A stretch of DNA of 64,000 bases. It comes from Sedimentisphaerales bacterium. GTDB lineage: Bacteria > Planctomycetota > Phycisphaerae > Sedimentisphaerales > Anaerobacaceae. Location of the stretch: contig JAFGDN010000093.1 of the NCBI GenBank assembly GCA_016932095.1, positions 23,101 to 87,100 on the forward strand, given 5' to 3'. The notes below the pieces were generated by a model, which saw only the letters and a program-made list of their open reading frames with translations, was not told the DNA's origin and did no database searches. Shown piece after piece: positions 41,339 through 48,748 of this stretch (positions are counted from its first letter, which is position 1; each line of letters begins with the position of its first letter). The translations under genes were made by a program, and so were the position numbers.

Positions 41339-42130
41339 CTATTTCAGGGCCGCCTTGATTTTGCCGATAAACGATGCTGTCTCGCCGATTATGTGTTTCC
41401 TATTATTCAGATTTTTTTCGATAATATCAACTATTTTCGAGCCGATGATTACACCATCCGCACCGGCTTTGGCGACCTCGACGGCATGCTCGGGCCTGCT
41501 TATACCGAAGCCGACGCATACCGGCACATCAGTAACATTTTTAATCCTCGCAACCAATCCTTTAACCGAGCCGGATAGTTTCGCCCTGGTTCCCGTAACG
41601 CCCAAAAGCGATACCGCGTAAATGAAGCCGGTGGTTTGGGAGGTAATCACCTTTAGTCGCTGCGGTTCTGTATTGGGCGTTACCATGAAAACTGTATCAA
41701 GGCCGGCATTTTGGGCGGGGCCGGTAATTTCATCGGCGTCGTCGATACTCAAATCCGCAACGAGAACGCTGTTGACGCCCGCCTTGTGAAAATCTCTGAA
41801 GAACTTTTCGACGCCGTATTGAAATACGAGGTTGTAGTACATCAAAAGCCCAATCGGGATGTCTTTGTGCTGCTTGACCTCCTTGATAAATTCGAGCGCC
41901 TTTTTGGTCGTCATCCCGTTTCGCAGCGACCGCACGTCGGCCTTTTGAATCGTTGGGCCGTCTGCTATCGGGTCTGAAAACGGTATCCCCAGTTCGAGGA
42001 TGTCCGCGCCGGCGTCTATGGCCGATTTCACGATTGCCAAACTTGTTTTGTAGTCCGGGTCGCCTATGACAAAAAACGGTATGACCGCCGCCCGATTCAA
42101 TTCCGAGAAAACCTCTTTATACGCTTTCAT
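41339..42130 (-). CDS. trpA: Tryptophan synthase alpha subunit
   Basis: The 263-residue TIM barrel has the catalytic Glu in ILELGIPFSDPIADGPTIQ (both acid residues conserved), the GLLMYYNLVFQYG strand, VADLSIDDADEI, and the phosphate site VGFGISRPEHA with GADGVIIGSKIV. It cleaves indole-3-glycerol phosphate and passes indole to TrpB. It begins three bases after the trpB stop, so translation is coupled. Confidence 0.95.
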   Translation of the reverse strand: MKAYKEVFSELNRAAVIPFFVIGDPDYKTSLAIVKSAIDAGADILELGIPFSDPIADGPTIQKADVRSLRNGMTTKKALEFIKEVKQHKDIPIGLLMYYNLVFQYGVEKFFRDFHKAGVNSVLVADLSIDDADEITGPAQNAGLDTVFMVTPNTEPQRLKVITSQTTGFIYAVSLLGVTGTRAKLSGSVKGLVARIKNVTDVPVCVGFGISRPEHAVEVAKAGADGVIIGSKIVDIIEKNLNNRKHIIGETASFIGKIKAALK

Positions 42131-42133
42131 TTC

Positions 42134-43312
42134 TCAATCCCTAAGTGGTCTGAATTTTTCAACGATACCTACGTCTTTATCGCCGCGGCCTGAGAGGTTC
42201 ACAACGGCAATCGTTTCTTTTGGCAATTTACCCTTGCGGCTGACCAGGTATGCCAGTGCATGGGCGCTTTCCAGCGCGGGCAAAATTCCCTCTTGTTTAC
42301 ACGTCAGTTCAAAGGCGTCCAAAACTTCTTTATCTTCAGCCGCGACGTATTCGGCCCTGCCGGTATCTTTCAGTAAGCAGTGCTCAGGTCCGACCGCCGG
42401 GTAATCGAGTCCGGCACTTACGGATTCGGTCTCGTGGACCTGGCCTTCCTTGTCCTGCAGGAGGTAGGCCCTTGCGCCGTGCAGGATGCCGACGCGGCCG
42501 GCGACCAGTGTCGCAGCGTGTTTTCCTCTGTTTAAGCTTCTTCCACCTGCCTCGACGCCAATCAGTCGCACGTCCTTGTCCTCTAAAAAGCCCGTGAATA
42601 TCCCTATCGCATTGCTGCCGCCGCCGACACAGGCGACAACCATATCCGGCAGCCGGCCTAATTTATCAAGACATTGCTGTCTCGTTTCCTTTCCGATGCA
42701 GGTTTGGAAATGTTTCACTATCGACGGATAAGGATGCGGCCCGCAAGCCGAGCCGAACAGATAAAACGTGTCCGTTACGTTGGCCGTCCAGTATCGAAGG
42801 GCGTCGTTTATCGCGTCCTTTAATGTTCCCGTTCCGCCCTCTACCGGCACAACCTTCGCCCCGCATAGTTTCATCTTATGAACGTTGACGCTTTGCCGCT
42901 CGATATCGGTTACGCCCATAAAAATCTTCGTTTCCATCCCGAACAGTGCGCCAATCATAGCGGTCGCAAGCCCGTGCTGACCCGCTCCGGTTTCGGCTAT
43001 AAGCTTTGTCTTGCCCATATACTTTGCAAGCAGTCCCTGGCCAAGTGTATTGTTCACTTTGTGTGCTCCGCCGTGAAGCAAATCCTCGCGTTTGAGATAC
43101 ACCTTGAAGCCCACGTATTCGCTGAAGCGCTTTGCGTAATAAAGCGGCGTCGGCCTGCCAGCGTAGTCGGCCAGAAGCCCCGAAAGCTCGTCCACGAAAC
43201 GCTTATCATGGTAGAAGCGATAAAACGATTCCTCCAGCTCCTCCAGAGCCGGTATCAGAACCTCCGGTACATAAAAGCCGCCGTAATCTCCAAATCTTCC
43301 CTTGTATTTCAT
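42134..43312 (-). CDS. trpB: Tryptophan synthase beta subunit
   Basis: The 392-residue PLP enzyme has the Schiff-base lysine in [13 protein letters not shown] near residue 86, [12 protein letters not shown] ([12 protein letters not shown] form) near residue 107, the serine-binding GSACGPHP and the phosphate loop [12 protein letters not shown]. It condenses indole with serine. It is the first of the trpB-trpA pair; the upstream ankyrin gene and a 110-base spacer separate it from trpF. Confidence 0.96.
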
Positions 43313-43422: not shown

Positions 43423-44571
43423 TTATTCTTTTGCGCCGGCTTTCTCAAGCATTTGCACGATGTCTTGATTTCCCCAACCTTTTGCCATTGCCAAAGCTGT
43501 TTCGCCGTAATTATCCATGACATTGGCGTCAGCGCCATATTCCAGCAGGAGTTTTACGGCTTCCTTTCGACCATTTCTCACCGCCCACAGCAGGGCCGTC
43601 GCGCCATGAGTCGTGTCCTTCTCATTGGCATCAGTGCCTTTTTCCAGAAGAAGCTTGACGGCCTCCTTATGGCCCTCTCCCGCCGCCATTATCAGGGCTG
43701 TTACACCATAGCTGTTCCTGGCGTTGACATCGGCGCCCTTTTCCAAAAGGAGCCGAATGATTTCCGTATGGCCGTTTTCCGCCGCCATTATCAGGGCCGT
43801 TCTTTCACGGCTATCCTTGGTATTGACCTCAACACCCTTTTCAAGCAAAGACCTGACGACCTCCGTATAACCTTTGTATGCCGATACCCAAAGAACTGCT
43901 ATGTCGTTAGTGTCCCATACATTGACATCGACGTCTTTTTCCAGAAGAAGCTTTTCGATTTCCGTCTGGTCTGCAAGCCACATCAGGGCCGTTATACCGT
44001 CCTTATTCCTGGCGTTGACGTCAGCGCCTTTTTCCAGCAATGACTTGACTGTATCTGTATGGCCGTTCATCGCCGCCAGTATCAGTGCTGTGTTGCCATA
44101 AGTAGCGTCCCTCGTATTCACATCAGCGCCTTTTTCCAGAAGGAGCCGGACTATCTCCGTATTGCCTTTTTCCGCAGCTATCCATAAAGCCGTTACATCT
44201 TTGTTATCTCTGGCATTAACATCAGCGCCATTTTCGAGAAGGGCCTTGACGATTTCCGTTCGTCTCATTCCCACCGCCCACAACAAGGCCGTTGCGCCGT
44301 TAATTGTGTCCTTCGCATTGACATCAGCGCCCTTTTCAAGAAGCAGCTTAGCGACCTCCATATTACCATTTCCCACTGCCATCATCAGGGCAGTTTGGCC
44401 GTTCTCATTCTTTGCATTGACATCAGCACCCTTGGCCAGAGCGGTTTTCACGGCCGGGAGGTTGCTATCTTTCGCGGCTTGAATCAATTGGGCGTTTTTT
44501 TCTAATATGTCCTCGTCGTTACACGATGTTACCATAAAAATAAACACTATGAAAAACAGGATTCGTTTCAT
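43423..44571 (-). CDS. Ankyrin-repeat lipoprotein
   Basis: The N-terminus MKRILFFIVFIFMVTSCND is a lipoprotein signal with a lipobox-type Cys at residue 17. The rest is about ten to eleven consecutive 33-residue ankyrin repeats, each with the pattern GxTALxxAxxxGxxExVxxLLxxGADVNAKD. Ankyrin domains bind other proteins. The protein would be anchored to a membrane and exposed to the periplasm. Its position between trpF and trpB on the same strand is not explained by Trp synthesis. The repeats are very similar to each other, which suggests recent internal expansion. Confidence 0.85.
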   Translation of the reverse strand: MKRILFFIVFIFMVTSCNDEDILEKNAQLIQAAKDSNLPAVKTALAKGADVNAKNENGQTALMMAVGNGNMEVAKLLLEKGADVNAKDTINGATALLWAVGMRRTEIVKALLENGADVNARDNKDVTALWIAAEKGNTEIVRLLLEKGADVNTRDATYGNTALILAAMNGHTDTVKSLLEKGADVNARNKDGITALMWLADQTEIEKLLLEKDVDVNVWDTNDIAVLWVSAYKGYTEVVRSLLEKGVEVNTKDSRERTALIMAAENGHTEIIRLLLEKGADVNARNSYGVTALIMAAGEGHKEAVKLLLEKGTDANEKDTTHGATALLWAVRNGRKEAVKLLLEYGADANVMDNYGETALAMAKGWGNQDIVQMLEKAGAKE

Positions 44572-44631: not shown

Positions 44632-45255
44632 TTAGCCCCGCAAATCCTTTATCTTGTCGAATAGTTTTCGCATTTTGGCGTGGTCTTTTTTTCCGGGTTT
44701 CGATTCGATGCCGCTGCAAACGTCGATACCGTATATGCCAAGCCCGACCGCTTTTGTTGCGTTTTCGGCCGTTATGCCGCCGGCCAGAAAAACGCGCTTG
44801 CTGATATTGCCGATAATGTTCCAGTCAAAAACAAGTCCCGTTCCGCCGTATTTTTTCGGGTCGAAGGCGTCTAATAGAATCGTGTCTGTGAAATATTTTT
44901 CAGCGAGTTTGATATCCTTCGCGTCTTTGACCCGAATCGCCTTTATGGTTCTGGCGTTGAGCGAGCGAAACCGTTCGCAAAACTCGTTTGACTCGTCGCC
45001 GTGAAACTGAATCCAGTCGAGGCTGCACTGCTCGACGATTTGTTTGATACGCTCGAAAGAGTCGTTTACAAAAAGCCCCACGACGTCAACGAAGGCGGGC
45101 AGCCGGTTTATGATTTTCACTGTCTCGGCCGGCTCGATGTATCTGGGGCTTTTCGGATAAAAATTAAACCCGAGCATATCCGCGCCCATATCCGCCGCCG
45201 CGTAAGCGTCCTCATAATTTGTTAATCCGCAAATCTTGACCTTGACAGCTAACAT
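44632..45255 (-). CDS. trpF: Phosphoribosylanthranilate isomerase
   Basis: ATG at 45255 with GAAGGA upstream is chosen; the frame is open further, to 45294, inside the end of trpD. The catalytic Cys lies in VKICGLTNYEDA and the catalytic Asp in ILLDAFDPKKYGGTG; LDWIQFHGDES and VFLAGGITAENA complete the family pattern. It converts phosphoribosylanthranilate to CdRP. No trpC gene is next to it, although its product would be the next substrate. Confidence 0.93.
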   Translation of the reverse strand: MLAVKVKICGLTNYEDAYAAADMGADMLGFNFYPKSPRYIEPAETVKIINRLPAFVDVVGLFVNDSFERIKQIVEQCSLDWIQFHGDESNEFCERFRSLNARTIKAIRVKDAKDIKLAEKYFTDTILLDAFDPKKYGGTGLVFDWNIIGNISKRVFLAGGITAENATKAVGLGIYGIDVCSGIESKPGKKDHAKMRKLFDKIKDLRG

Positions 45256-45274
45256 TTTATCGTGCGTTCCTTCT

Positions 45275-46291
45275 TTAACTTTTTGAAATCTCAATCATTT
45301 TTTCCAGCCGTTGAGACGCCTGCCCGTTGTCGATTGCCTGCCTCGCCAGCCGAAGCGCCTCGCCGAAGTTTTCAGCCAGGCCTCCCACAATTATCGCCGC
45401 AGCCGCGTTTAGCACAACTATATCTTTTCGAGGGCCTTTTTCGACGCCGTTGAGGATATTTTTAATGATATCGGCGTTGTTCTTCGCGTCGCCGCTGCTT
45501 AGTGAATCGAATGCAACGGTTTTAATTCCGTAATCGCTCGGTGAAAACGACCATTCGCGTATCTTGCACTCATCGAGTTCCGTAATCTTCGTCGGCCCCG
45601 TAATGCTGATTTCGTCAAGGCCGTTGCTGTGCACAATCATCGCGCGCTGAGTGCCTAACAAATTCAGCGCTTCCGCGACGACCGGCATAAGCGACTGGTC
45701 TGCGACGCCCAAAACCTGTGCCTTTACGCCTGCTGGGTTTGCCAACGGTCCCAGAAAATTGAAGACCGTTCTGAATCCAAGTCCTTTTCTTACCGGCTGA
45801 ACGTATTTCATCGCCGGATGGAATTTGGGCGCGAACATAAACCCGATTCCCGCCTCCCTTATACATTGTCCCACGCTCTCCGGCCCCGCCTCGATATTTA
45901 CGCCCAGCTCCGCCAAAACATCCGCTGAGCCGCATTTACTGGTTATCGCGCGATTGCCGTGTTTGGCGACATAAACACCGGCGCCCGCCGCGACCAGCGC
46001 CGCCGCCGTCGATATATTGAACGTTTTTACCGCGGCCCCGCCCGTCCCGCAGGTATCGACGAGATTATCAACGCCGCCGTTAACTTTTACAGCGTGTTGT
46101 CGCAGCGACATGGCAAGGCCGGCAAGCTCTCCGGCGGTTGTCGGCCTGCAGCGCATCGCCGTCAGAAACGCTGCTATCTGAATCTCCGGGACCTCCCCTT
46201 CGAAAATAACGTCCAGCGCCCTTGTTGCCTGTTCAAACGTTAGGTTCTCGCCCCGCAATATCGGCTCTATGTATTCAGTTATTGTCGCCAT
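45275..46291 (-). CDS. trpD: Anthranilate phosphoribosyltransferase
   Basis: The 338-residue protein has the PRPP-binding DTCGTGGAAVKTFNIST near residue 80, the KHGNRAITSKCGSADVLAELG region and the FNFLGPLANPAGVKAQVLGV segment, all diagnostic of TrpD. It joins anthranilate to PRPP. It starts 11 bases after the trpG stop. Confidence 0.95.
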   Translation of the reverse strand: MATITEYIEPILRGENLTFEQATRALDVIFEGEVPEIQIAAFLTAMRCRPTTAGELAGLAMSLRQHAVKVNGGVDNLVDTCGTGGAAVKTFNISTAAALVAAGAGVYVAKHGNRAITSKCGSADVLAELGVNIEAGPESVGQCIREAGIGFMFAPKFHPAMKYVQPVRKGLGFRTVFNFLGPLANPAGVKAQVLGVADQSLMPVVAEALNLLGTQRAMIVHSNGLDEISITGPTKITELDECKIREWSFSPSDYGIKTVAFDSLSSGDAKNNADIIKNILNGVEKGPRKDIVVLNAAAAIIVGGLAENFGEALRLARQAIDNGQASQRLEKMIEISKS

Positions 46292-46302
46292 TGTAAAATT
46301 CC

Positions 46303-46905
46303 TTATTCGCTTCGGTATCCTTTGGCTATCCTCAAAACGTTCTCGATTATCCTGCCGCCCGCGGGGGTCAGGATGCTTTCCGGGTGAAACTGAACGCCGA
46401 ATATCGGCAGCTTTCTGTGCCGGACGCCCATATTGACGCCCTCGAACTGGGCTGTCTCCTCCAGGCAGTCAGGCAGTTTCAAGGCGCATAAGCTGTGGTA
46501 TCGTCCTGCCTGCAGGGGATTTTCGACGCCGGCAAATACGTCTTTTTCGTTATGCGATACTCTCGAGGGCTTACCGTGCACCGGCCTGGGGGCGTGTCCA
46601 ATCTCGCCCCCGAAATATTCCACTATCGCCTGATGACCTAAGCACACGCCGAATATCGGCAGCTTTTCCTTGAAATACCCGATTGCTTCGAGCGTTACTC
46701 CCGCCGTCTTGGGCGTCCCGGGCCCGGGCGAAATCACAAGCAAATCCGGCGTAATGTCATCTGCTACCTTTTTCAGGTCTTCAAGCGATGTATCCGACCT
46801 GTAAACCTTCGCCTCGCAGTTACGCTTGCAGAAATCATCGACAAGGTTATAGGTGAACGAATCGAAATTGTCGATAAATAAAATTTTTCTTGTCTTACCG
46901 CTCAT
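46303..46905 (-). CDS. trpG: Anthranilate synthase component II (glutamine amidotransferase)
   Basis: The class I glutaminase triad is visible: Cys in IFGVCLGHQAIVEYFGG near residue 82, and His-x-Glu in VQFHPESILTPAGG near residue 177. The N-terminal ILFIDNFDSFTYNLVD and SPGPGTPKTAG motifs are the TrpG/PabA pattern. It supplies ammonia to TrpE. The gene lies 10 bases after the trpE stop. Confidence 0.93.
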   Translation of the reverse strand: MSGKTRKILFIDNFDSFTYNLVDDFCKRNCEAKVYRSDTSLEDLKKVADDITPDLLVISPGPGTPKTAGVTLEAIGYFKEKLPIFGVCLGHQAIVEYFGGEIGHAPRPVHGKPSRVSHNEKDVFAGVENPLQAGRYHSLCALKLPDCLEETAQFEGVNMGVRHRKLPIFGVQFHPESILTPAGGRIIENVLRIAKGYRSE

Positions 46906-46915
46906 AACGGATACC

Positions 46916-48511
46916 TCATTGTTTTTTCAGTGCTCGTATGCACGACCCTGCCTTGTGCTCGGTTTCCTCGAATTCTGTTTTCGGAACGCTATCGTGAACA
47001 ATCCCGGCCCCGACGCGAATATACGCCGTGTGGTCTTTAATCTGCAAGCTCCTTATCGTGATGCAGCTGTCGAACTGGCCGTCAACCGTCAGGTACATAA
47101 CCGCTCCGCCGTAGTATCCGCGTTTGGTCTTCTCAAGCTGCCTGATTATTTTCATTGCCTCGATTTTCGGCGCACCCGTCAGCGTTCCCATATTCATAGT
47201 CGCAAGATATGCGCTTAACGCGTCGAGGTCATTCGCCAGCGTTCCCTTGACGTTGCTGACTAAATGCTGCACCGATTCGTATTTCTCGACGGTCAATAAT
47301 TCCGTTACGACCCTGCTTCCCGGCTCAGCCACCCGCGCGATGTCGTTTCTCGCCAAATCGACCAGCATCATATGCTCGGCCAGCTCCTTGCGGTCAATCT
47401 TCAGCTCCGCCTCGTACCTGAAATCGATGTCCGCGTCGAGCTTTCCGTTGACCCTGCCCCTCGGCTTTGTCCCGGCTATCGGCCTGATTTCCACGCTGCG
47501 GTTTTCCGTTCCGCTGACGCGCAGATTCAATTCCGGGCTTGAGCCGAGTATCGTCGTATTCGGCGTGTTTATGTAAAACATATACGGCGACGGGTTCAGC
47601 TCCCTTAATCGCTTATACACGTCCAGCGGCTCGTCCGGGCAGGGCTCAATCTTCGTCCTGCTCAGCACAACCTGAAAAATGTCCCCGTCAAGTATATGCT
47701 GCTTGGCCAGGCGAACCATTTCCTCGTATTCCTGCTGTTTAGTGTCTGTCGTCGATTCCGGCAGGGGGGCTTTGTGCTTTTGCCCCCTCGGCGTATCGAA
47801 CCTCGTGATATTGGCATAGTAATCGAAACAGTCCTGCGCCTCTTGAATCGCCTGTTCCGGGTCGCCGTCGGTTATTATGACGTTTACAACCACGTATCCC
47901 TGTCCGTGCTCGTGGTCCATCAAAAAGATATTATCCGCGAAGTACAGCTCATAATCGGGATTGCCCAGCAGGTCAGAGGTGCTGGCAGGCAGTTTCTCGA
48001 ACTGGTCAATAAAGTCGTAACTTAACGCGCCCAGTAATCCGCAGGTAACTCTAAAAGGTTTGCTCGCCATTCGAAATGAAAACGCGGCCATTCGCAAAAC
48101 ATCCATCTGGTTTGTGCTCGACAGCCGCGTCTGCTCGTCAACCAGCTTATCGGTTTGCTTGATGATTCCTTTTATTCTCTCGGCGTTAAAATCAATCCTC
48201 TCGCAAAACTCGAACCGCTCCGCGTTGCCGGTCAAAAACGAAATCATTCTCTTTCCCGTTTTGTTCAGAGCCCTTATCTCGAATTCCCTCCCCGTTCCTG
48301 TTATATACAGCGCCGGCCGGGCCGTGCCGAAGCTAAGGGCGCTGGTTCCCGCGAGGTATTCTCTCGATTCCAGAAGACAGCAGTTTTTCGACCGCCCGTA
48401 ATCGCTTATCTTTGCGAAAAAGTCCATCGGGTCTTTCATCTCGATGCGCTTGACAATCGGGATTACCTCCCCCGGCTTTGCGCTCTCTATTATCTTCCTG
48501 TAATCTTCCAT
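46916..48511 (-). CDS. trpE: Anthranilate synthase component I
   Basis: The 531-residue enzyme has the Trp feedback-binding segment CCLLES at residues 44-49 (LLES motif), DIFQVVLSRTKIEP, RPIAGTKPRG and MVDLARNDIARV, and the C-terminal GAPKIEAMKIIRQLE and RVGAGIVHDS motifs of chorismate-binding enzymes. It makes anthranilate from chorismate. The start codon is preceded by AAGGG, which can pair with CCCTT just before the ATG (five-base stem, AACA loop), so the ribosome site may be partly masked. Expression appears controlled by the attenuator upstream. Confidence 0.95.
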   Translation of the reverse strand: MEDYRKIIESAKPGEVIPIVKRIEMKDPMDFFAKISDYGRSKNCCLLESREYLAGTSALSFGTARPALYITGTGREFEIRALNKTGKRMISFLTGNAERFEFCERIDFNAERIKGIIKQTDKLVDEQTRLSSTNQMDVLRMAAFSFRMASKPFRVTCGLLGALSYDFIDQFEKLPASTSDLLGNPDYELYFADNIFLMDHEHGQGYVVVNVIITDGDPEQAIQEAQDCFDYYANITRFDTPRGQKHKAPLPESTTDTKQQEYEEMVRLAKQHILDGDIFQVVLSRTKIEPCPDEPLDVYKRLRELNPSPYMFYINTPNTTILGSSPELNLRVSGTENRSVEIRPIAGTKPRGRVNGKLDADIDFRYEAELKIDRKELAEHMMLVDLARNDIARVAEPGSRVVTELLTVEKYESVQHLVSNVKGTLANDLDALSAYLATMNMGTLTGAPKIEAMKIIRQLEKTKRGYYGGAVMYLTVDGQFDSCITIRSLQIKDHTAYIRVGAGIVHDSVPKTEFEETEHKAGSCIRALKKQ

Positions 48512-48572
48512 AAGGGTGTTCCCTTAAAAGCGTTATCTTTAACTGCTTATAGGCCGAATTACAATAAAAAAA

Positions 48573-48603
48573 GCGGCCTGTCGTCTTTATTCCAACAGGC
48601 CGC
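48573..48603 (-). terminator. trp attenuator: terminator hairpin (regions 3 and 4)
   Basis: On the - strand region 3, GCGGCCTGT (48595-48603), pairs with region 4, ACAGGCCGC (48573-48581), with a 13-base loop, and is followed by seven T. It lies 62 bases before the trpE start. Confidence 0.88.
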
Positions 48604-48628
48604 TTTTTTAACTCTTTTTTTTCTTAGT

Positions 48629-48669
48629 GCAGATTTCCCGCCTGCCCGTCGGATTATCCAACAGGCCGC
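48629..48669 (-). promoter_or_regulatory. trp attenuator: anti-antiterminator and antiterminator pairing regions 1 and 2
   Basis: Region 1, GCCTGTTGGA (48657-48666), overlaps the end of the leader peptide and is identical to the start of terminator region 3 (13 bases shared). Region 2, TCCGACGGGC (48644-48653), can pair all ten bases (two G-U) with either copy. Pairing 1:2 leaves region 3 free for the terminator; pairing 2:3 destroys it. AATCTGC (48629-48635) can also pair with GCAGATT in the first leader codons (48696-48702). Confidence 0.82.
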
Positions 48670-48704
48670 CACCAACCAAACAAATTGTTTCGGCTAATCT
48701 GCAT
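48654..48704 (-). CDS. trpL: trp leader peptide with tandem Trp codons
   Basis: The frame ATG-TAA encodes MQISRNNLFGWWRPVG, 16 residues with two adjacent TGG codons at positions 11-12. The stop codon is exactly the three-base loop between attenuator regions 1 and 2. Scarce Trp-tRNA would hold a ribosome on the TGG codons over region 1, freeing region 2 to pair with region 3 so that trpEGDF-BA is transcribed. The predicted transcription start lies only about three bases before this ATG and no Shine-Dalgarno site is visible, so it is likely translated as a leaderless message. Confidence 0.85.
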   Translation of the reverse strand: MQISRNNLFGWWRPVG

Positions 48705-48713
48705 TATTTTATT

Positions 48714-48748
48714 ATTTTACCACATCCTGCACTTTCTGTCAATGTCAA
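48714..48748 (-). promoter_or_regulatory. trp operon promoter
   Basis: A perfect -35 TTGACA (48737-48742), a 17-base spacer and -10 TAAAAT (48714-48719) form a near-consensus sigma70 promoter. A second TTGACA (48743-48748) lies directly upstream in tandem (TTGACATTGACA). The start point would be near 48707. Confidence 0.82.

What the first reader, a model, noticed from the sequence alone, without database searches (positions are those of the whole stretch)
48573..48748. Complete classical trp attenuator with tandem-Trp leader peptide in a probable planctomycete
Seen directly: a near-consensus promoter (TTGACA, 17 bases, TAAAAT), a 16-residue leader peptide MQISRNNLFGWWRPVG with TGG TGG, its stop codon sitting in the loop between regions 1 and 2, a ten-base pairing 1:2 and the alternative 2:3, and a terminator 3:4 with U7 before trpE. 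Regions 1 and 3 share 13 identical bases. This is the E. coli logic of ribosome-mediated attenuation. I know of no detailed description in this phylum, and the near-leaderless leader peptide is unusual.
Basis: partly seen in the sequence, partly recalled or inferred. Interest (0 to 1): 0.87.

Follow-up and report, generated by a model that had tools for sequence, protein, structure and literature searches.

The report
Tryptophan attenuator across a planctomycete order
Ahead of a planctomycete's tryptophan-making genes lies a leader with a tiny gene rich in tryptophan codons and a terminator-like hairpin, predicted to shut those genes off when tryptophan is plentiful as in E. coli, and the same layout recurs in nearly every relative we could read in its order.

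Summary
On the minus strand, upstream of trpE-trpG-trpD-trpF, lie a strong sigma-70-type promoter, a 16-codon ORF with tandem Trp codons, a 1:2 hairpin whose predicted loop is exactly the UAA stop, a competing 2:3 pairing and a 16-bp terminator with U7. It is not a one-off. Of 103 readable trpE upstream regions in the same order (Phycisphaerae/Sedimentisphaerales by relatives' record titles), all 103 show Trp codons in a short ORF and a terminator-like hairpin: 96 with adjacent Trp codons, 5 with two or more close together, 2 with one. In the window's family, pairings 1:2, 2:3 and 3:4 are kept with compensatory changes. Read-through in response to Trp is inferred, not measured. Rfam's Trp_leader model does not recognise it. 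The papers searched describe no planctomycete trp attenuator. A new member of a known kind.

The parts
48714..48742 (-). sigma-70-type promoter: -35 TTGACA 48742-48737, 17 nt, extended -10 TG.TAAAAT ending 48714
   Evidence: 11 of 12 matches; in 88 leaders of the order TTGAC in 83, spacer 17 in 85
48654..48704 (-). leader ORF MQISRNNLFGWWRPVG*, Trp codons 11 and 12 at 48674-48669, stop UAA 48656-48654
   Evidence: same-genus relatives L002 and L015 also GWWRPVG, L003 LWWWPVG
48628..48703 (-). outer helix ('helix 0'), predicted: 48703-48696 (UG of the AUG and the bases after it) with 48635-48628
   Evidence: fold; on 52 relatives 82% of cells paired, 22 double-change cells against 10.2 shuffled; cognate duplex stronger than the mean of cross-family swaps in 75 of 88
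48644..48666 (-). hairpin 1:2: region 1 48666-48657, loop = stop codon 48656-48654, region 2 48653-48644
   Evidence: -17.2 kcal/mol; 77.9% of cells paired
48591..48653 (-). antiterminator 2:3: region 2 48653-48644 with region 3 48600-48591
   Evidence: -19.8; 94.9% of cells paired, 11 double-change cells against 0.6 shuffled
48566..48608 (-). intrinsic terminator 3:4: 48608-48593 with 48583-48568, U7 48572-48566
   Evidence: -26.2 kcal/mol, z -7.56; 97.4 and 95.5% of cells paired
46916..48511 (-). trpE, anthranilate synthase component I, first gene after the leader; the U-tract ends 54 nt before its ATG
   Evidence: Pfam Chorismate_bind and Anth_synt_I_N
46303..46905 (-). trpG, glutamine amidotransferase component
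   Evidence: Pfam GATase; name by context
45275..46291 (-). trpD, anthranilate phosphoribosyltransferase
   Evidence: Pfam Glycos_transf_3 and Glycos_trans_3N; name by context
44632..45294 (-). trpF, phosphoribosylanthranilate isomerase
   Evidence: Pfam PRAI
41339..43312 (-). trpB (42134-43312) and trpA (41339-42130), same strand, possibly the same operon
   Evidence: trpA by Pfam PF00290; trpB named from its sequence by eye

Best explanation
This leader has the full sequence anatomy of a ribosome-mediated trp transcription attenuator, conserved across the order, and it likely works as in E. coli. Predicted steps: transcription starts about 1-4 nt before the leader AUG, and a ribosome loads without a Shine-Dalgarno. 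When charged tRNA-Trp is scarce, the ribosome would stall on the Trp codons at the edge of region 1, leaving region 2 free to pair with region 3, so RNA polymerase reads on into trpEGDF. When Trp is plentiful, the ribosome would reach the stop codon in the 1:2 loop and cover region 2, and the 3:4 terminator forms. If no ribosome loads, 1:2 plus the outer helix on the first codons would hold region 2 and also hide the start codon, so termination would be the default. Shown here: the sequence elements, their conservation and covariation, and the operon context. Inferred: the start site, translation of the leader, ribosome stalling and Trp-dependent read-through.
For: Window anatomy. The genes behind it are trp genes. 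Trp codons: 89 of 89 readable upstreams of the ~530-aa TrpE type carry the leader: 56 WWW, 29 WW, one W.W, two with a single Trp, one with its start masked by N but WWWPAG* visible; a ninetieth (L007) is cut by its contig end. 14 of 14 readable upstreams of diverged trpE genes in the order (32-45% identical) carry ORFs with two or more Trp codons and a terminator-like hairpin. Covariation on 52 of the 58 leaders of the window's family: terminator 97.4/95.5%, 2:3 94.9% and 1:2 77.9% of cells paired, against about 50% or less for slid controls; double-change cells exceed all 500 shuffles. The first ATG after the -10 is in frame with the Trp codons in 81 of 88, and last Trp codon to stop is 9-18 nt in 63 of 88. 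No TrpR (PF01371) match in this genome; E. coli and B. subtilis ring among 14 controls.
Against: No expression data. In 25 of 88 leaders the stop lies further on, so 'stop in the loop' is not universal. Two leaders (L085, L087, one genus) have a single Trp codon. RNAalifold alone predicted only 1:2 and 3:4, with a covariation term of -1.4 kcal/mol and double changes in 7 of 16 pairs; it did not propose the outer helix. Double-change cell counts do not beat every slid control: for 2:3, slide -1 gives 15 against 11; for the outer helix, slides -2 and +2 give 23 and 29 against 22. For 2:3, 171 of 500 shuffles reach the observed number of pair types; for the outer helix, 142 of 500 reach the number of pairs with double changes. 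The outer-helix duplex is weak in L066, L067, L075, L076 and L079, and in the same-genus L002 its best form is a different, gapped one. Columns 54:67 of hairpin 1:2 pair in only 11 of 52.
Confidence: 0.93

Rival explanations
1. The short transcript is mainly a trans-acting product: the terminated RNA (about 140 nt) and its peptide act elsewhere, as rnTrpL and peTrpL do in S. meliloti, and attenuation of trpE is secondary.
For: A near-leaderless leader ORF with a strong promoter, and no TrpR match, resembles the S. meliloti case, where the attenuator RNA and peptide act in trans (PMC7298713, passages).
Against: The parts that are kept are those needed in cis: Trp codons, 2:3 and 3:4. Peptide residues outside the Trp run vary between families. 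The two roles do not exclude each other.
Confidence: 0.08
2. The terminator is a fixed partial terminator and the ORF is incidental (Trp-independent attenuation).
For: No expression data are at hand.
Against: Two or more Trp codons in 101 of 103 readable relatives, in frame with the first ATG after the promoter in 81 of 88. A similar ORF scan over 62 trpE upstreams outside the order gave adjacent-Trp leaders with a terminator that I accept in only 5.
Confidence: 0.03
3. A Trp-sensing protein or tRNA element (TRAP-like site or T-box) controls the terminator.
For: Other bacteria regulate trp genes so (established knowledge).
Against: No Rfam family reaches its gathering score in the window or in 20 relatives' upstreams. 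A TRAP gene was not searched for. Neither element needs Trp codons in an ORF.
Confidence: 0.01

Closest known systems
E. coli trp attenuator (trpL, 14-aa leader)
   Same: Tandem Trp codons at residues 10-11 (E. coli) and 11-12 (here), stop after a few more codons, terminator with U-tract before trpE (sequence fetched, read); the 1:2/2:3/3:4 logic is established knowledge. E. coli's leader also folds an outer helix, GGGUAUC just before trpL with GAUACCC near the terminator.
   Different: E. coli's outer helix lies on the stretch before the start codon (its ribosome-binding site, established knowledge); here there is no Shine-Dalgarno-like motif and the outer helix lies on the start codon and first codons. 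The E. coli duplex at the equivalent place is not above shuffles (-7.3 against -6.2, sd 2.1), while the 88 leaders have median z -3.1, 66 of 88 below -2. No TrpR match here.
S. meliloti trpL / rnTrpL attenuator
   Same: Leader RNA that starts with the ATG of trpL, 14-aa peptide with consecutive Trp codons, attenuation of trpE, not subject to transcriptional repression (PMC7298713, passages).
   Different: Different phylum and gene (trpE(G) alone); trans-acting roles shown there are untested here.
Streptomyces leader-peptide attenuators
   Same: Several leader peptides are transcribed leaderless (PMC8079986, passages).
   Different: Some of those lack a typical terminator; different phylum.
Rfam RF00513 Trp_leader
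   Same: Aligns over the model's full length, 19.9 bits.
   Different: Far below the gathering score of 41; no hit at gathering in the window or in 20 relatives.

Membership tests
ribosome-mediated trp attenuator (E. coli type) | short leader ORF with tandem Trp codons | tested here: met
   Window WW. Of 103 readable relatives 96 have adjacent Trp codons, 5 two or more close together, 2 one
ribosome-mediated trp attenuator (E. coli type) | intrinsic terminator (3:4) between leader ORF and structural gene | tested here: met
   in the window; in relatives (T-run of at least 6 in 88 of 88; weakest hairpin -11.4 kcal/mol)
ribosome-mediated trp attenuator (E. coli type) | mutually exclusive antiterminator 2:3 | tested here: met
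   94.9% of cells paired in 52 leaders, double changes above all 500 shuffles, though one slid control has more double-change cells
ribosome-mediated trp attenuator (E. coli type) | protector hairpin 1:2 with Trp codons at region 1 and stop between 1 and 2 | tested here: met
   Window: the loop is the UAA. Relatives: stop within 18 nt of the last Trp codon in 63 of 88, later in 25 of 88
ribosome-mediated trp attenuator (E. coli type) | controls Trp biosynthesis genes | tested here: met
   Pfam domains of trpE, trpG, trpD, trpF behind the leader; control itself is inferred
ribosome-mediated trp attenuator (E. coli type) | leader ORF is translated and read-through rises when Trp is scarce | not testable with these tools
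   needs RNA-seq or reporters
Rfam RF00513 Trp_leader | score at or above gathering (41 bits) | tested here: not met
   19.9 bits, E 0.13; no hit in 20 relatives
leaderless trpL (S. meliloti type) | transcript 5' end at or next to the leader AUG | tested here: inconclusive
   -10 end to ATG is 9 nt in the window and 6-13 nt in 88 of 88 leaders, no AGGA/GGAG/GAGG before them; the 5' end is not mapped
T-box leader | T-box structure (Rfam) | tested here: not met
   no Rfam hit at gathering in the window or 20 relatives

The most novel reading that the evidence does not exclude
In this order the attenuator carries its own ribosome gate: the leaderless AUG and first codons are captured by an outer helix once about 80 nt of RNA have emerged, so only a ribosome that loads in the first moments of transcription can translate the leader. 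Each nascent transcript would thus be read by essentially one pioneer ribosome. The device has outlived replacement of the gene it controls, standing before very different kinds of trpE.
Probability: 0.3. Interest if true: 0.68.

Novelty: new member of a known kind. Interest (0 to 1): 0.5.

Why it matters
A 2010 survey stated that, to its authors' knowledge, leader-peptide systems had not been shown outside Proteobacteria and Actinobacteria, and added Firmicutes (PMC2965389, passages). An order-wide set of about 100 planctomycete leaders implies that transcription and translation are coupled closely enough for attenuation in this phylum, whose cell organisation has been debated (recalled). It also gives a rich natural alignment for studying how a leader ORF without a Shine-Dalgarno can serve attenuation, and how the device persists or re-arises when the gene behind it differs.

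Tried and rejected
Pattern scan for TGGTGG..T-run in 397 class genomes: 206 of 397 genomes matched, many of them outside the order, and the reversed control pattern also matched widely; not used for any claim. Weak covariance-model hits L182-L190: terminators without a tandem-Trp ORF; rejected. Outside the order, Trp-pair ORFs in L217, L219, L221, L224, L225, L228, L229, L267, L276, L280, L286, L288, L291, L301 and L304 were judged by eye not to be attenuators (no terminator, wrong place, or overlap with a gene) and are not counted; L221, L224, L267 and L286 did have a hairpin and remain uncertain; L210 (WRWR) is borderline and not counted. RNAalifold did not support the outer helix; I tested that helix separately. 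The mean pairing probability of the first 15 leader nt does not differ from E. coli (0.66 against 0.67), so it is no distinguishing trait. Fetched but not read one by one: L092-L171 (used for record titles), L172-L181, L192-L206 and L231-L260.

Dropped before counts: L007 (contig ends 24 nt upstream). 6 of 58 family leaders (L011, L016, L024, L048, L052, L091: insertions or odd lengths) left out of alignment A1. L029 (start masked by N) left out of the 88 leaders measured. 12 of 116 genomes with a TrpE match not examined: G005, G010, G018, G029, G049, G050, G057, G060, G062 and G114 (truncated or poor matches), G098 and G112 (contig ends). Leader starts were set by hand among in-frame ATGs in 8 loci (three of these reset) and by a short string in 3.

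Full report
What was checked. The minus strand upstream of trpE (48511-46916) was read directly. The promoter is TTGACA 48742-48737, 17 nt, TAAAAT ending at 48714, with an extended -10 TG. Nine nt further on, at 48704, is the ATG of a 16-codon ORF, MQISRNNLFGWWRPVG. The predicted 10-bp hairpin 1:2 has the UAA stop as its whole loop; region 2 can instead pair with region 3; regions 3 and 4 form a 16-bp stem with U7. The leader folds 7.45 sd better than shuffles.

Operon. Pfam domains of the following four genes fit trpE, trpG, trpD and trpF. After an ankyrin-repeat lipoprotein gene come trpB (by eye) and trpA (PF00290). The genome has no match to the Trp repressor family; E. coli and B. subtilis rang among 14 control genomes (the genome is estimated 96% complete).

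Relatives. TrpE was found in 116 of 119 related genomes. I read upstream regions of 104; one (L007) is cut by its contig end, leaving 103. Of these, 89 precede the same ~530-aa TrpE type (families f1, f2, f3, f6, f7 and two genomes of f4): 85 have an ORF with WW or WWW, L074 has W.W, L085 and L087 have one Trp codon, and L029 has its start masked by N but shows WWWPAG*. The other 14 precede diverged trpE-like genes, 32-45% identical to the window's (families f4 and f5; open frames of about 500 to 770 aa; taken as trpE from the match and the leader, not tested further). All 14 have an ORF with at least two Trp codons (10 adjacent) and a terminator-like hairpin. ORFs were chosen for their Trp codons, so chance must be controlled. 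A similar scan, over longer stretches, of 62 trpE upstreams outside the order (24; 38 of the 40, the other two being of the order) gave adjacent-Trp leaders with a terminator that I accept in 5 of 62 (L211, whose hairpin has only a short T-run, L212, L295, L296, L302). These may be true attenuators of other planctomycete lineages. Two genomes of one genus in a further Phycisphaerae family have WWWP leaders, one seen before trpD and trpC (by eye; L191/L261), the other cut by its contig end (L263).

Taxonomy.

Structure across relatives. 52 of the 58 leaders of the window's family were aligned (A1; median pairwise identity 65% over the 58). With a named structure, cells paired were 97.4/95.5% (3:4), 77.9% (1:2), 94.9% (2:3) and 82.0% (outer helix), against about 50% or less for the slid controls. 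Double-change cells: 57 against 26.6 shuffled for the set with 1:2, 3:4 and the outer helix, 11 against 0.6 for 2:3, and 22 against 10.2 for the outer helix alone, each exceeding all 500 shuffles. They do not exceed every slid control, though (2:3: 15 at slide -1; outer helix: 23 and 29 at slides -2 and +2), and related sequences can exceed such shuffles. So I added a swap test: the cognate outer-helix duplex is stronger than the mean of swaps with other families in 75 of 88 (-13.98 against -9.09 kcal/mol), and 2:3 likewise in 75 of 88. Within families f2 and f7 the outer helix wins only in 8 of 12 and 9 of 14. An example of compensation in f2: GGCUCA/UGAGCC in L068 and GGUUCA/UGAACC in L077.

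Covariance model. R1, built on A1, finds a match at E <= 0.01 in 72 of 397 class genomes. By my count from the lists, these are 70 of 95 genomes in the order (many of them in the model by construction; one, G084, a plain terminator) and 2 of 302 outside it (G325, a plain terminator; G356, a WWWP leader before trpD). The model misses some leaders that I read by eye (for example G081, G085, G089).

Near-leaderless start. In 88 leaders the best promoter, sought within 25 nt of the ATG, ends 6-13 nt before it (9 nt in 49). It matches 11 or 12 of 12 consensus bases in 68 of 88, against 5 of 440 shuffled upstreams; TTGAC occurs in 83 and the spacer is 17 in 85. No AGGA, GGAG or GAGG occurs in a 15-nt window before the leader ATG in any of 88, against 37 of 88 before the trpE match start (which is not the true start in some). 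With the usual 6-8 nt from -10 to start (established knowledge) the 5' UTR would be a few nt. The 14 leaders before diverged trpE genes differ: several show Shine-Dalgarno-like stretches (by eye).

Comparison with E. coli. At the place equivalent to the outer helix, E. coli trpL is not above shuffles, but the E. coli leader folds GGGUAUC, just before trpL, with GAUACCC near the terminator. That distal leader RNA hides the E. coli leader ribosome-binding site was, as I recall, shown in vitro in the 1980s (recalled, no call). The planctomycete outer helix looks like the counterpart for an RNA with no Shine-Dalgarno. The mean pairing of the first 15 leader nt is the same in both (0.66 and 0.67).

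Literature. Searches of the open full-text library that joined planctomycete or phycisphaer terms with attenuation, leader peptide, trpE, leaderless or attenuator, and more general ones, listed no paper that describes a trp attenuator in this phylum. Passages seen: PMC4833913 (a leader-gene survey that includes Planctomycetes but concerns reinitiation, and cites Lopatovskaya et al. 2010, which I could not read), PMC2965389, PMC7298713, PMC8079986, PMC1262725 and PMC8632094 (no planctomycete mention). All others were seen as search listings only. Subscription papers may hold predictions.

Verdict. The finding is real, conserved and correctly read. The mechanism is the known one; the lineage, the near-leaderless form kept across most of the order and the start-proximal helix are the new parts. 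Trp-dependent read-through remains to be measured.

Noticed in passing
43423-44571 (-): An ankyrin-repeat lipoprotein gene sits between trpF and trpB on the same strand.
   Followed up: no
48525-48509 (-): AAGGG-AACA-CCCTT-ATG: a short perfect hairpin directly before the trpE start could hide its Shine-Dalgarno-like AAGGG. Conservation not tested.
   Followed up: no
L024, L052, L068, L073, L091: In-frame insertions of about 21-45 nt within the leader ORF before the Trp codons, some palindrome-like (as in L024 and L068); the frame and the adjacent Trp codons are kept.
   Followed up: partly
L191 (G356), L263 (G351): Leaders MKRRNLSNFTWWWPTDIDAGG and MTQRNFSNCTWWWPTDIDAGG in another Phycisphaerae family; in L191 it precedes trpD rather than trpE, and TTGACA lies close enough to the ATG to suggest a near-leaderless ORF again.
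   Followed up: partly
L211, L212, L295, L296, L302: WWW leaders with terminator-like hairpins before trpE in planctomycetes outside the class (families f33, f93, f48), with different leader sequences.
   Followed up: partly
L300, L305, L307-L318: Families f4 and f5 carry diverged trpE-like genes (32-45% identical), yet these too follow Trp-rich leaders (up to 5 Trp codons) with a terminator-like hairpin.
   Followed up: partly
L085, L087 (one genus): Leaders with a single Trp codon (YWRRPQA), while sisters L083 and L084 have YWWRPQA; sensing may be weakening there.
   Followed up: no
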